A stretch of DNA of 64,000 nucleotides from Microbacterium dauci (lineage in GTDB: Bacteria; Actinomycetota; Actinomycetes; Actinomycetales; Microbacteriaceae). Shown here in pieces: positions 43,935-48,533 of the stretch. The notes under the pieces were generated by a model that did not search any database, was not told the DNA's origin, and was given only the letters and a program-made list of their open reading frames with translations. The stretch spans positions 434,001-498,000 of the forward strand of contig NZ_JASJND010000006.1 in the NCBI RefSeq assembly GCF_030065535.1, given 5' to 3'. A program made the translations under genes and the position numbers. Positions within the stretch are counted from its first letter, which is position 1; every line of letters begins with the position of its first letter.

Positions 43935-45164
43935 GTGAGCGACACGACCCCCACCACCGGTCCCGCCGTCCAGTTCGGCATCTTCACCGTCAGTGACATC
44001 ACCCAGGACCCGACCACGGGACAGACACCGAGCGAGCGGGAGCGCATCGCCGCGACGGTCGAGATCGCGAAGCACGCCGAAGAGGTCGGACTCGACGTCT
44101 TCGCCATCGGTGAGCACCACAACCCGCCGTTCTGGTCGTCCTCTCCCACGACGACGCTCGCGTACATCGCCGCCCAGACCGAGAAGCTCATCCTCTCGAC
44201 GTCGACGACGCTCATCACCACGAACGACCCGGTGAAGATCGCCGAGGACTACGCGATGCTGCAGCACCTCTCCGGCGGGCGCATGGACCTCATGCTCGGG
44301 CGCGGCAACACCGGCCCCGTCTACCCGTGGTTCGGGCAGGACATCCGTCAGGGCGTTCCGCTCGCCATCGAGAACTACGCCCTGCTCCACAAACTGTGGC
44401 GCGAGGACGTCGTGGACTGGGAGGGCAAGTTCCGCACGTCGCTGCAGGGCTTCACCTCGACTCCGCGTCCCCTCGACGGTGTGCCGCCGTTCGTGTGGCA
44501 CGGCTCGATCCGCACGCCCGAGATCGCCGAGCAGGCCGCGTACTACGGTGATGGCTTCTTCGCGAACAACATCTTCTGGCCCGCCGAGCACTACCAGCGC
44601 CTCATCGGCCTCTACCGTCAGCGCTGGGAGCACTACGGGCACGGCGCGCCCGAGACGGCGATCGTCGGCATCGGCGGGCAGACGTTCATGGCGAAGAACT
44701 CGCAGGACGCCGTCTCGCAGTTCCGCCCCTACTTCGACAACGCGCCCGTCTACGGGCATGGTCCGTCGATGGAGGACTTCGCCGAGATGACGCCCCTCAC
44801 CGTCGGCTCGCCGCAGCAGGTCATCGACCGTTACGCGGGCATGCGCGACCTCTTCGGCGACTTCCAGCGTCAGCTGTTCCTCGTCGACCATGCGGGGCTC
44901 CCGCTGAAGATGGTGCTCGAGCAGCTCGACTTCCTCGGCGGCGAGGTCGTGCCGGTGCTCCGCAAGGAGCTCGCCGAGCGTCGCCCCGCGAACGTCCCGG
45001 ACGCTCCGAACCACGCCGCGCGCGTCGCTGCCACCTACGGTGACGGCCCCGTCCGCGATGCCCGGCCCCGCGCCAACCGTGGCGACAACCTCTCTGGCCC
45101 GAGCCCGTACCAGGACACGCCCGCAGCCGCCGGCGCGAGCTTCGGTCTGGGTGGTGCACGATGA
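43935..45164 (+). CDS. CE1758-type FMN-dependent luciferase-like monooxygenase
   Basis: 409-residue flavin-dependent monooxygenase with a TIM-barrel bacterial-luciferase fold: FGIFTVSDITQD, GLDVFAIGEHHNPPFWSSSP, LSTSTTLITTNDPVKIAEDYAMLQHLSGGRMDLMLGRG in segments, and PPFVWHGSIRTPEIAEQA. It needs reduced FMN, which the next gene, a flavin reductase starting inside its stop (ATGA), would supply. Substrate unknown. The GTG at 43935 is chosen (GGAAAG upstream); a GTG at 43908 is an alternative adding nine residues. Confidence 0.9.
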   Translation: MSDTTPTTGPAVQFGIFTVSDITQDPTTGQTPSERERIAATVEIAKHAEEVGLDVFAIGEHHNPPFWSSSPTTTLAYIAAQTEKLILSTSTTLITTNDPVKIAEDYAMLQHLSGGRMDLMLGRGNTGPVYPWFGQDIRQGVPLAIENYALLHKLWREDVVDWEGKFRTSLQGFTSTPRPLDGVPPFVWHGSIRTPEIAEQAAYYGDGFFANNIFWPAEHYQRLIGLYRQRWEHYGHGAPETAIVGIGGQTFMAKNSQDAVSQFRPYFDNAPVYGHGPSMEDFAEMTPLTVGSPQQVIDRYAGMRDLFGDFQRQLFLVDHAGLPLKMVLEQLDFLGGEVVPVLRKELAERRPANVPDAPNHAARVAATYGDGPVRDARPRANRGDNLSGPSPYQDTPAAAGASFGLGGAR

Positions 45165-45805
45165 CCGCCCGGCGCATCGCCGTCGTCTCGGCGGGGCTGT
45201 CGAACCCGTCCTCCACGAGGATGCTCGCCGACAAGCTCGCCGCGGCGACGGTCGCCGACCTCGCGGGGCGCGACGTGGTGGCATCCGTCGACGCGTTCGA
45301 ACTCCGCGAGTACGCACATGACATCACGAACAACCTGCTCACCGGCTTCGCGCCGCCCGCGCTCGAGACCATGCTCAGCGCGGTCGTCTCGGCCGACGCG
45401 CTCATCGTCGTGACGCCGATCTTCTCGACGAGCTACTCCGGGCTGTTCAAGTCGTTCATCGACGTGATCGATCCGGACGCACTCCACGGGATGCCGGTGC
45501 TGATCGGCGCCAACGCGGGGACGGCGCGGCACTCCCTCGCCATCGACTACGCGATCCGCCCGCTCTTCACCTACCTGCGTGCTGAGCCCGTGCCGACCGG
45601 CGTCTTCGCGGCGTCGTCGGACTGGGGCGCCCGCGCCGACGACGTGAAGCCGCTCAGCGCGCGCATCGACCGCGCCGCGCGCGAGCTCGCCGACGCGATC
45701 GACCGTCGACCCGTGGCATCCGGTCTCGACCCGTTCGACCCCGAGGCCTACCTCGGCAAGGGCGGATCTTTCGGCCACCTGCTGGGCGGGCTCAGCGGGG
45801 AGTGA
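45161..45805 (+). CDS. CE1759-type NADPH-dependent FMN reductase
   Basis: 214-residue flavodoxin-fold reductase giving reduced flavin to the adjacent monooxygenase. Seen: RRIAVVSAGLSNPSSTRMLAD (phosphate-binding loop), TPIFSTSYSGLFKSFIDVID, and IGANAGTARHSLAIDYAIRPLF. Its start overlaps the monooxygenase stop. Its last 14 nt overlap the 3' end of the convergent DedA gene, and no terminator is seen. Confidence 0.92.
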   Translation: MTARRIAVVSAGLSNPSSTRMLADKLAAATVADLAGRDVVASVDAFELREYAHDITNNLLTGFAPPALETMLSAVVSADALIVVTPIFSTSYSGLFKSFIDVIDPDALHGMPVLIGANAGTARHSLAIDYAIRPLFTYLRAEPVPTGVFAASSDWGARADDVKPLSARIDRAARELADAIDRRPVASGLDPFDPEAYLGKGGSFGHLLGGLSGE

Positions 45806-46388
45806 CCCTGCGGCGGCGCGCGACCACGACGTCGATCGCGACGCCGAGGAGCAGTGCGGTGACGATCGACAACACGATCGCGAGGATCGGGTCACCGGGA
45901 AGCAGGGCGCCGATCGCGGCGCCCACGACCGCCTGGTAGCAGGCCCAGAGCAGCCCGGCCACGGCCACGACACTCAGATACCTCACCGCCGGCACGCGCG
46001 TCGCGCCGGCGGTGAGGTTCACCGCGAGTCTCGCGAACGGGATGAACCGAGCCGTGAAGACGACGGTCGCGGCCCCTCGGTCGAGCCGTGCGCCCGCCCA
46101 CTCGAGTGCGGCGACCACGCGGCGGTGCCGCATCCACCGCCACCGACCGAGGCCGACCGCACGGCCGAGCAGGTAACAGCCCAGATCGCCGCAGAACGCC
46201 GCGGCCGCCGCGACCGCGATCACCGCGAGCAGGGGTGGTGAGCCGACGGATGCCGCGAGGGCACCGGCCGCGCTCACGGCGATCTCTCCGGGGACGACGA
46301 CCAGGAGGGCGTCGAGCAGCACCAGGGCGAACAGTCCGGGCAGGAGCCACGGCCCGTCCAGCACCCCGGTGAGCAGATCCGCGACCAC
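45792..46388 (-). CDS. DedA-family membrane protein
   Basis: About 198 residues with the SNARE-associated/VTT domain: LLVVVPGEIAVSAAGALAAS, GDLGCYLLGRAVG, VVFTARFIPFARLAVNLTAG (the F-x-R-F-x-P-x-x-R motif) and GLLWACYQAVVGAAIG. Such proteins are flippases or proton-driven transporters for envelope lipids including undecaprenyl phosphate. The start is uncertain: GTG 46388 with GGAG close by gives the usual length. It is divergent from the glycosyltransferase fusion, another envelope gene. Confidence 0.82.
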   Translation of the reverse strand: MVADLLTGVLDGPWLLPGLFALVLLDALLVVVPGEIAVSAAGALAASVGSPPLLAVIAVAAAAAFCGDLGCYLLGRAVGLGRWRWMRHRRVVAALEWAGARLDRGAATVVFTARFIPFARLAVNLTAGATRVPAVRYLSVVAVAGLLWACYQAVVGAAIGALLPGDPILAIVLSIVTALLLGVAIDVVVARRRRVTPR

Positions 46389-46505
46389 GCTCCAGAGGTA
46401 GCGCGACCGGGTGAACGCAGGGCGAACGGGCGCTGCTCGAATGAGCGTCTCGGCTTGCCCGGAGAAGGGTCGACGACGCGCCGGTGACCGGTCGGGGGAG
46501 CGTTC

Positions 46506-48533
46506 GTGAACACTCGGAAACCCGGCCCCTCCGAGGCGCTCGAACCGGGGCTCGGTGTGCACCCTGGTCGTGTGAGAGTCGCGGTCATCACCGAGTCCTT
46601 CCTCCCCCACATGAACGGGGTCACAGGTTCCGTCCTCCAGGTGCGGGACCACCTCGAACGTGCCGGCCACGACGTTTTCGTCGTCGCACCGGCGGTCCGC
46701 AGGCATGCGCTCGGGATGCCGGGGCGCAGCGTCGCCTCCGTCCCGTTGCCCGCGTACCCCGCGGTGCGTGTGTCGATCCCGCCGTCGGCGAGCATCGCGC
46801 GAGACCTCCGCCGCTTCGATGCCGACGTCGTGCACCTCGCGTCGCCGTTCCTGCTCGGCTGGCAGGGGCTCGTCGCCGCCGACGCGCTGCAGCTGCCATC
46901 GGTCGCGGTCTACCAGACCGATGTCGTCGCCTATGCGGCGCGATACGGCGTCCCGCAGGCGACCGCGCTCGCCGAGGCGCACGTGCGCCGGCTGCACCGA
47001 CGTGCGACGCTGACCCTCGCACCCTCGGATGCCGCCAGGTCGCAGCTCGAGGGCCTCGGTGTCGACCGCGTCGCCCTGTGGGGGCGCGGTGTCGACGGCA
47101 TCCGCTTCGCCCCGCACAAGCGCGACGAGGCATGGCGTGCGCTGATCGCGCCGGGAGAGACGATCGTCGGCTACGTGGGTCGCCTGGCGCCCGAGAAGCA
47201 GGTCGAGGACCTCGTCGCGCTGCGTGGACTTCCCGGCATCCGTCTCGTCATCGTCGGTGACGGGCCCTCGCGTCCGATGCTCGAACAGCTCCTCCCCGAC
47301 GCGGTGTTCACGGGGCATCTCCAGGGCGACGAGCTCGCCGCGGCGATGGCGAGCTTCGACGTCTTCGTTCACCCCGGCGAGAGCGAGACGTTCGGGCAGA
47401 CGATCCAAGAGGCGCAGGCGAGCGGTGTGCCCGTCGTCGCGACCGGCCGCGGGGGTCCGCTCGACCTCGTCCGCAGCAGCATCGACGGCTGGCTGTACCG
47501 TCCCGGCGACGCCGACGACCTGCGCGCGCGGGTCGCCGACCTCGCCGGCGACCCGGCGAAGCGCCGAGCCTTCGCGGATGCCGCTCGCGGCGCGGTCGCC
47601 GGCCGGACATGGTCGCACCTGGGCGACCGGTTGCTCGAGCACTACGACCGCGCGATGCACCTGTCACGGCTCGACCGCGGGCTTCGCGCCAAGGCGTGGC
47701 CGCGACCAGAGCTCCCGACGACGCCCGCCGATGAGGCCCGGCGTCGCTGGTCACGCTATGTCGCCCTCGGCGACTCCATCACCGAGGGCCTCTGCGACAC
47801 GTCTCGGATGCCGGAGGGACAGTTCCGCGGCTGGGCCGACCGACTCGCGCAACTCCTCGCCCTCTCCGGTCCGAGCCGACGCCCGTTCCGGTACGCGAAC
47901 CTCGCCGTCCGCAGTCGCCGTGTCGGGCACCTGCTGGCCGAGCAATTACCGCGCGCGCTGGAGCTGCGTCCCGACCTGGCATCCGTCCTCATCGGCGCCA
48001 ACGATCTCGTGGGGGCGCGCGTCGACGTCGACGCCCTCGCGCGCGATGTCGACACGGCGGTACGGAGGCTCCGGGCATCGGGCGCGGACGTCCTGCTCGC
48101 GACGGTGTTCCTCCCCGAGCGCGCGGCTGCGGGTCTCCTGGCGCGGCGCTTCGGGGCGTTCAACGCGCGGCTTCGGACCATCGCCGCAGAGACGGGCGCC
48201 ATCCTCCTCGACCTCGAGGCGCACCCCGAGCTCGGACGCCTCGACTTCTGGGCGGACGACCGCGTGCACCTCCGCTCGCGCGGCCACCGATACGTCGCCT
48301 ACCGCGCAGCCGAGGCGCTCGGCGTCCCGCACGCAGAGGCGCTCGCCGAGCTCGATGAGGCGTTCCACGTCGACGAGGAATCGCCCGCGCAGGGCACCTG
48401 GCTGCGTCGGGACGCGCTCCCCTGGGTGTGGCGTCGCATCCGCGGACGGACCGCCGGCGACGGGCGCACGGCGAAGCTGCCGGACTACGTCGTCGTGGGG
48501 CGAACCAGCGGGCGCACGTCCGCGCGCCACTGA
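46506..48533 (+). CDS. GT4 glycosyltransferase fused to an SGNH/GDSL hydrolase
   Basis: 675-residue two-domain protein. Residues about 20-385 form a GT4 retaining glycosyltransferase of the PimB/MgtA type (VAVITESFLPHMNGVTGSV, GYVGRLAPEKQVEDL near 220, HPGESETFGQTIQEAQASG near 290 with the E-x7-E motif). Residues about 415-650 form an SGNH hydrolase: YVALGDSITEG with Ser near 423, LIGANDLV with Asn, and WADDRVHL with the Asp/His pair. The reading frame runs through the junction (EARRRWSRYVAL) without a stop. The first half would add mannose or glucose to a lipid; the second would remove acyl groups. GGGGGAG is 4-5 nt before the GTG; an internal GTG at 46572 is possible. Confidence 0.85.
   Translation: MNTRKPGPSEALEPGLGVHPGRVRVAVITESFLPHMNGVTGSVLQVRDHLERAGHDVFVVAPAVRRHALGMPGRSVASVPLPAYPAVRVSIPPSASIARDLRRFDADVVHLASPFLLGWQGLVAADALQLPSVAVYQTDVVAYAARYGVPQATALAEAHVRRLHRRATLTLAPSDAARSQLEGLGVDRVALWGRGVDGIRFAPHKRDEAWRALIAPGETIVGYVGRLAPEKQVEDLVALRGLPGIRLVIVGDGPSRPMLEQLLPDAVFTGHLQGDELAAAMASFDVFVHPGESETFGQTIQEAQASGVPVVATGRGGPLDLVRSSIDGWLYRPGDADDLRARVADLAGDPAKRRAFADAARGAVAGRTWSHLGDRLLEHYDRAMHLSRLDRGLRAKAWPRPELPTTPADEARRRWSRYVALGDSITEGLCDTSRMPEGQFRGWADRLAQLLALSGPSRRPFRYANLAVRSRRVGHLLAEQLPRALELRPDLASVLIGANDLVGARVDVDALARDVDTAVRRLRASGADVLLATVFLPERAAAGLLARRFGAFNARLRTIAAETGAILLDLEAHPELGRLDFWADDRVHLRSRGHRYVAYRAAEALGVPHAEALAELDEAFHVDEESPAQGTWLRRDALPWVWRRIRGRTAGDGRTAKLPDYVVVGRTSGRTSARH

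What the first reader, a model, noticed from the sequence alone, without database searches (positions are those of the whole stretch)
46506..48533. GT4 glycosyltransferase and SGNH hydrolase in one polypeptide
A PimB/MgtA-like transferase and a complete SGNH esterase (GDSITEG, GANDLV, DxxH) are joined without a stop or frameshift. Placement opposite a DedA lipid-flippase-type gene and near an O-acyltransferase gene suggests a combined glycosylation and deacylation step in making an envelope glycolipid. I do not know of a described enzyme with this pairing.
Basis: partly seen in the sequence, partly recalled or inferred. Interest (0 to 1): 0.6.

Follow-up and report, generated by a model that had tools for sequence, protein, structure and literature searches.

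The report
Fused sugar-transferase and lipid-esterase enzyme
Microbacterium and some related bacteria make one protein that joins a probable mannose-adding enzyme to an ester-cutting enzyme; unfused relatives often sit side by side elsewhere, which points to a shared job in making an unusual membrane glycolipid.

Summary
The fusion is real. Window 46572 (or 46506) to 48530, + strand, encodes one protein with a GT4 transferase and a GDSL/SGNH hydrolase. It is not an assembly error: all 80 kept relatives span both domains, as do 91 of 119 genomes of the genus, one of them frameshifted. Both domains trace to single clades. Fusions were seen only in Microbacteriaceae (ranked lists). Catalytic residues of both domains are kept in 116 of 116 rows.

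Unfused GT orthologs often have an SGNH gene beside them: 25 of 97 loci not picked for that, in 11 families, against 1 partial hit in 20 control windows. Usually a second GT lies between. Those operon SGNHs form another clade, so the partnership probably arose more than once. The GT resembles MgtA (Rv0557), judged by its locus near menD.

Best reading: mannose transfer to a glycerolipid coupled to acyl-ester remodelling. This fits published Microbacterium lipids with an acyl chain on mannose C6. No activity has been measured; hydrolysis versus acyl transfer is open.

The parts
46572..48530 (+). GT4-SGNH fusion gene (653 aa; the longest possible start is GTG 46506; stop 48531-48533)
   Evidence: both domains in 80 of 80 kept loci and in 91 of 119 genus genomes, one frameshifted
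46614..47588 (+). GT4 glycosyltransferase domain, Pfam extent; R204 (47181), K209 (47196), E-x7-E E272 (47385) and E280 (47409), 653-aa numbering
   Evidence: Pfam; residues kept in 116 of 116 rows; Foldseek to MshA, PimB', PimA
47670..47753 (+). variable linker joining the two domains
   Evidence: length and low conservation across 96 rows
47763..48290 (+). GDSL/SGNH hydrolase domain, Pfam extent; Ser402 (47775), block II Ser448 in place of Gly (47913), Asn477 (48000), Asp563 (48258), His566 (48267)
   Evidence: Pfam; residues kept in 116 of 116 rows; fold match Z about 21 to GDSL esterases
48291..48530 (+). C-terminal extension with a W...P...RR helix, seen also in separate SGNHs of this group; function unknown
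   Evidence: W218, P225, R229, R230 listed as nearly invariant in A2 (many rows there end early); helix 218-231 in the model
45807..46400 (-). DedA/VTT membrane protein gene, divergent neighbour; possible lipid translocator (inference)
   Evidence: Pfam VTT; opposite strand, upstream, in 76 of 80 fused loci

Best explanation
A two-step glycolipid enzyme, probably on the cytoplasmic face of the membrane (inference; no signal-peptide or membrane-span prediction was run). The GT4 domain, of the MgtA (Rv0557) type, transfers alpha-mannose from GDP-mannose to a glycerolipid, most likely diacylglycerol. The tethered SGNH domain then attacks an acyl ester of the product with Ser402. It removes the acyl chain from the glycerol, probably at sn-2, and either releases it or passes it to mannose O6. 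The outcome would be glycolipids with acyl on mannose C6 or on one glycerol position, such as those isolated from Microbacterium. Shown: the fusion, its conservation, both sets of catalytic residues, and repeated genomic linkage of this GT with SGNH genes. Inferred: location, donor, acceptor, acyl position, and hydrolysis versus transfer.
For: Both domains in one frame in 80 of 80 kept relatives and both domains in 91 of 119 genus genomes, one frameshifted; both active sites kept in 116 of 116 rows, a few of them the same gene fetched twice. Unfused GT orthologs: 29 of 101 loci have an SGNH gene within 2.1 kb and none elsewhere in the held stretch; 23 have a second GT as well, 3 are direct GT-SGNH tandems (L180, L219, L250), 3 have other orientations; 20 control windows gave one partial SGNH and no second GT. 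Four of the 29 (L193, L194, L214, L250) were picked for adjacency; without them 25 of 97. Fused and operon SGNHs are separate clades. Mannose donor: in 11 of 101 unfused loci, all Microbacteriaceae, a gene related to mannose-1-phosphate guanylyltransferase is divergently beside the GT. The f22 counterparts lie near menD, where Rv0557 lies; Rv0557 (MgtA) makes a mannosylated GlcA-diacylglycerol lipid (PMC3229680, passages). Chemistry: M. testaceum testacosides A-C carry the acyl on mannose C6, D on glycerol C3 (PMC10786734, sections read); Microbacterium DSM 12583 makes 1-O-acyl-3-[Glc-(6-O-acyl-Man)]-glycerol. Six records named M. testaceum carry the fusion. DedA neighbour in 76 of 80.
Against: No enzyme activity, lipid profile or mutant was found for this gene. 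The testacoside strain was identified by 16S, and its genotype at this locus is unknown. Another Microbacterium lipid is a plain diacyl galactosyl glycerol. 72 of 101 unfused GT loci have no SGNH nearby, including 17 of 18 from family f6 and all 4 from f22. Two genus genomes, one a single contig, keep the GT domain and have no SGNH within the 13 kb held, so the GT can do without a linked one. The SGNH fold is about equally close to acetylxylan esterases, other GDSL esterases and TesA, so a long-chain acyl substrate is not shown. The guanylyltransferase representative scores below the NCBIfam equivalog cut-off (253 vs 373 bits), and only one of the 11 was scanned. The own genome has no close ortholog of the operon's second GT (best 29%).
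Confidence: 0.45

Rival explanations
1. The SGNH domain is a plain hydrolase for quality control or turnover: it removes acyl chains from the mannosyl-glycerolipid (or from lysolipids), and mannose C6 is acylated by a separate acyltransferase.
For: SGNH enzymes are mostly esterases (recalled); fold neighbours include TesA/lysophospholipase L1. Testacosides are monoacyl lipids.
Against: Pairing with a synthetic enzyme in one protein and in operons of several families favours a productive step; other SGNH domains act as acyl transferases in AT3-SGNH proteins (PMC9558356, passages).
Confidence: 0.25
2. The SGNH domain acts on a short-chain ester or another small substrate (for example O-acetyl groups on sugars), and the fusion only secures joint expression.
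For: The best Foldseek matches include acetylxylan esterase Axe2; the closest separate SGNHs sit beside an exonuclease-type gene, not beside a GT.
Against: Different SGNH clades are linked to the same GT.
Confidence: 0.15
3. The GT works on another lipid acceptor (glucuronosyl-diacylglycerol as in MgtA, a phosphoinositide, or a polyprenol) for a lipoglycan, and the SGNH domain edits that anchor.
For: MgtA acts on GlcA-diacylglycerol (PMC3229680, passages); the DedA neighbour matches UptA-type transporters, though below cut-off.
Against: Published Microbacterium lipids include ones with mannose directly on glycerol.
Confidence: 0.12
4. Two genes joined by an assembly or sequencing error.
For: None found.
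Against: 80 of 80 kept relatives span both domains; no stop across the junction in 96 rows.
Confidence: 0.005

Closest known systems
MgtA (Rv0557 / NCgl0452) GT4 alpha-mannosyltransferase
   Same: GT domain 49-52% identical to the f22 proteins encoded near menD; GT4 E-x7-E; expected glycerolipid acceptor
   Different: stands alone, with no SGNH in 4 of 4 f22 loci; acceptor of the Microbacterium enzyme is unknown
PimA and PimB' phosphatidylinositol mannosyltransferases
   Same: same fold
   Different: 20-25% identity in the Foldseek alignments; no SGNH domain (recalled)
TesA/lysophospholipase L1 and GDSL acetylesterases (Axe2)
   Same: same fold and the Ser, Asn, Asp, His set (their residues recalled)
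   Different: block II Gly is Ser in all 116 fused rows; C-terminal extension; fused to a GT
AT3-SGNH acyltransferases (OatA, OafB)
   Same: SGNH joined to a second catalytic domain, used for acyl transfer onto sugars (PMC9558356, passages)
   Different: their partner is a membrane acyltransferase and the SGNH faces outside; here the partner is a GT4 enzyme

Membership tests
GT4 glycosyltransferases (Pfam Glyco_transf_4 + Glycos_transf_1) | both half-domains above gathering score | tested here: met
   83 vs 28.5 and 92.7 vs 26.4 bits
GT4 glycosyltransferases (Pfam Glyco_transf_4 + Glycos_transf_1) | E-x7-E motif and the Arg/Lys pair (roles recalled from PimA work) | tested here: met
   116 of 116 rows
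MgtA (Rv0557) mannosyltransferase | mycobacterial counterpart sits at the Rv0557 locus, near menD | tested here: met
   menD on the same strand 1.3-1.4 kb from the GT in 4 of 4 f22 loci, one called gene between in L246 and L247; MenD identified; menD = Rv0555, menH = Rv0558. Caveats: f22 is unnamed, the test is one-way best match, and the flanking gene tried in L246 did not match a menH family
MgtA (Rv0557) mannosyltransferase | GDP-mannose donor and GlcA-diacylglycerol acceptor | not testable with these tools
   biochemistry needed; only guanylyltransferase-like neighbours in 11 of 101 unfused loci
N-acetylglucosaminyl phosphatidylglycerol synthase (NF053787) | score above the curated cut-off | tested here: not met
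   147.2 vs 480 bits
GDSL hydrolases (Pfam Lipase_GDSL_2) | profile above gathering score and the fold | tested here: met
   96 vs 32.9 bits; Z about 21
GDSL hydrolases (Pfam Lipase_GDSL_2) | Ser, Asn, Asp and His of blocks I, III and V | tested here: met
   116 of 116 rows
canonical SGNH subfamily | block II Gly | tested here: not met
   Ser in 116 of 116 fused rows, while several separate relatives have Gly and some have Ser; its backbone amide could still serve (inference)
UptA undecaprenyl-phosphate transporter (DedA neighbour) | score above the curated cut-off | tested here: not met
   41 vs 250 bits; VTT domain itself met

The most novel reading that the evidence does not exclude
One polypeptide first mannosylates diacylglycerol and then moves the sn-2 acyl chain onto mannose O6 through an acyl-serine intermediate. 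It would thus make the 6-O-acyl-mannosyl glycerolipids of actinobacteria, and the separate GT-GT2-SGNH operons of other families would run the same pathway with split enzymes.
Probability: 0.28. Interest if true: 0.8.

Novelty: new variant of a known kind. Interest (0 to 1): 0.58.

Why it matters
Glycerolipids with an acyl chain on mannose are reported from many actinobacteria (PMC4365757, passages), and the passages and sections seen here name no gene for the acyl placement. A conserved fusion and a recurrent GT-SGNH operon give a concrete candidate, so an old structural oddity becomes testable with one knockout and one purified protein.

Tried and rejected
Rejected: assembly error or frameshift in the window gene. 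Rejected as a conserved partner: the O-acyltransferase gene (19 of 80 within the held flanks). Rejected: that the fused SGNH descends from the operon SGNH (separate clades; quick tree, SH-aLRT only). No close ortholog of the operon's second GT in the own genome. Context of the closest separate SGNHs (a same-strand gene next door in 11 of 12 loci, its representative an RNase_T-type exonuclease) gave no lipid clue. A hydrophobic-moment scan did not single out the C-terminal helix. Searches for the fusion or for acyl-placement genes (searches returned none; 72, 73, 74 and 89 seen as listings) gave nothing on target. Passages of PMC3836763 and PMC4071594 added nothing used. No signal-peptide or membrane-span prediction was run.

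Limits of the counts: the unfused loci were picked by hand from ranked lists, the control windows sit at arbitrary other coordinates of 20 of the same genomes, and 11 of the 29 SGNH-linked loci come from one genus (g94), so the loci are not independent. The SGNH profile was built from rows that include several of the linked SGNHs. One SGNH hit (L262) is cut by a contig end. Long rows L265, L212 and L250 are placed unsurely. The GT tree used 75 of the 101 unfused GTs (one held a stop in the matched stretch, 25 were left out to save time) and 25 fused ones. Among the 116 fused rows a few are one gene fetched twice. print only the best-ranked matches.

Full report
A single frame from 46506 (most likely start 46572) to 48530 encodes a GT4 transferase followed by a GDSL/SGNH hydrolase. 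Nine of 96 aligned rows have a stop at query position 9 or 12, upstream of 46572, and none has one later. The window lies in a 2.88 Mb genome of 13 contigs; its nearest named relatives are records titled Microbacterium.

The fusion is conserved and has one origin. All 80 kept genome contigs relatives (the best of 388 confirmed) span both domains. Among whole genomes, both domains are fused in 17 of 199 Microbacteriaceae, in 8 of 85 genera, in 20 of 396 genomes of the order and in 14 of 394 of the class, all in family f1. These samples share genomes, and print only the best-ranked matches. In the genus sample 93 of 119 genomes match at 1e-60. Of these, 91 carry both domains (one, G937, with a frameshift; two begin at a contig end). 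Two, G966 and G1007, keep the GT domain alone with no SGNH in the 13 kb held, and the DedA neighbour is not found there either. Fused GTs form one clade (SH-aLRT 99) and so do fused SGNHs (99).

Both halves look active. In 116 of 116 fused rows (a few of them one gene fetched twice) the GT Arg/Lys pair and both Glu of E-x7-E are kept, and so are the SGNH Ser, Asn, Asp and His. Block II holds Ser instead of the canonical Gly in all 116. AlphaFold2 gives pLDDT 91.1 and pTM 0.88 for the whole protein, and 90.3 and 0.89 for the SGNH part. Foldseek matches the GT to MshA, PimB' and PimA and the SGNH part to LAE5, Axe2 and TesA (VIA Z about 21 for the best). A shared fold does not fix the substrate.

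What the GT is. In four of four f22 genomes the counterpart (49-52% identical) lies 1.3-1.4 kb from menD on the same strand, with one called gene between in the two loci examined for genes. The MenD of L246 matches PDB chain 5erx_A at 1006 bits (recalled to be the M. tuberculosis enzyme, the call names only the molecule). A paper gives menD as Rv0555 and menH as Rv0558 (PMC3317779, passage), so the GT sits where Rv0557 (MgtA) sits. The flanking gene tried in L246 did not match a menH family, so that side is unconfirmed. MgtA makes a mannosylated glucuronic-acid diacylglycerol lipid (PMC3229680, passages). In 11 of 101 unfused loci, all Microbacteriaceae, a gene related to mannose-1-phosphate guanylyltransferase is divergently next to the GT. 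One representative was scanned: it scores below the NCBIfam cut-off and above Pfam's for NTP_transferase and ManC_GMP_beta-helix. The other ten are 63-83% identical to it. Both lines point to GDP-mannose, without proving it.

The GT and SGNH partnership recurs without fusion. With a profile built from these SGNHs, 29 of 101 unfused GT loci have an SGNH gene within 2.1 kb of the GT, and none has one elsewhere in the held stretch; 20 windows at other coordinates of 20 of the same genomes gave one partial hit. Four of the 29 loci (L193, L194, L214, L250) had been picked because adjacency was visible; without them the count is 25 of 97. Twenty-three loci read GT, second GT, SGNH; six have an SGNH and no second GT; four have a second GT and no SGNH (one of these, L257, distant and on the other strand); controls had no second GT. 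The 29 span 12 families, 11 without the picked loci, and 11 of the 29 are one genus. Direct GT-SGNH tandems are L180, L219 and L250. In the SGNH tree the 22 operon rows and L250 lie apart (99) from the fused rows; L180 and L219, and the three loci of other orientation, fall in two further groups nearer the fused ones. So at least two SGNH lineages, probably more, became linked to this GT. Against a strict coupling, 72 of 101 loci show no SGNH nearby, including 17 of 18 f6 loci.

Neighbours. DedA is upstream on the opposite strand in 76 of 80 fused loci; the O-acyltransferase is near in only 19 of 80. A DedA gene also follows GT-SGNH in L180 and the GT in L181.

The chemistry that fits. M. testaceum testacosides A-C are 1-[Glc-alpha-1,3-(6-O-acyl-alpha-Man)]-glycerols, and D has the acyl on glycerol C3 (PMC10786734: section 17 part 1 and section 19 read). 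Microbacterium sp. DSM 12583 makes 1-O-acyl-3-[Glc-(6-O-acyl-Man)]-glycerol (PMC10786734 section 19 and PMC2866492 passages). Similar dimannosyl lipids with an acyl on mannose C6 are listed for Rothia, Arthrobacter and others (PMC4365757, passages). Against this, a Microbacterium sp. M874 lipid is a plain diacyl galactosyl glycerol. Six records named M. testaceum carry the fusion (L023, L033, L039, L044, L046, L049). A mannosyltransferase tied to an acyl-ester enzyme is what the acyl-on-mannose lipids would need. This link is inference: the producing strain was typed by 16S, and no gene has been tested.

Verdict: a real, conserved two-domain enzyme built from two known families, with good genomic support for one shared glycolipid pathway. 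The order and nature of the ester step are open.

Noticed in passing
L078 5001-7010: A record titled Planococcus sp. APC 4015 carries the Microbacterium-type locus (fusion 62% identical; DedA, LLM, DctA neighbours), so the label or the assembly looks wrong.
   Followed up: no
L328 3750-5662: The fused gene of G937 is split by a frameshift near residue 561.
   Followed up: partly
L326 6001-7140; L327 6001-7179: Two genus genomes have the GT half alone, and no DedA was found in the held stretch.
   Followed up: partly
L195-L206: The closest separate SGNHs are followed by a conserved gene in 11 of 12 loci; its representative is an RNase_T-type exonuclease.
   Followed up: no
window 43938-45802: A gene recalled as a luciferase-like oxidoreductase (not scanned) and a CE1759-family FMN reductase gene lie upstream and are often kept near the fusion (55 and 65 of 80 loci).
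   Followed up: no
L231, L232, L291: GT followed by the second GT but without an SGNH gene in the held stretch.
   Followed up: no
window 48291-48530: The C-terminal W...P...RR stretch is listed as nearly invariant among fused and separate SGNHs, a possible family mark.
   Followed up: partly
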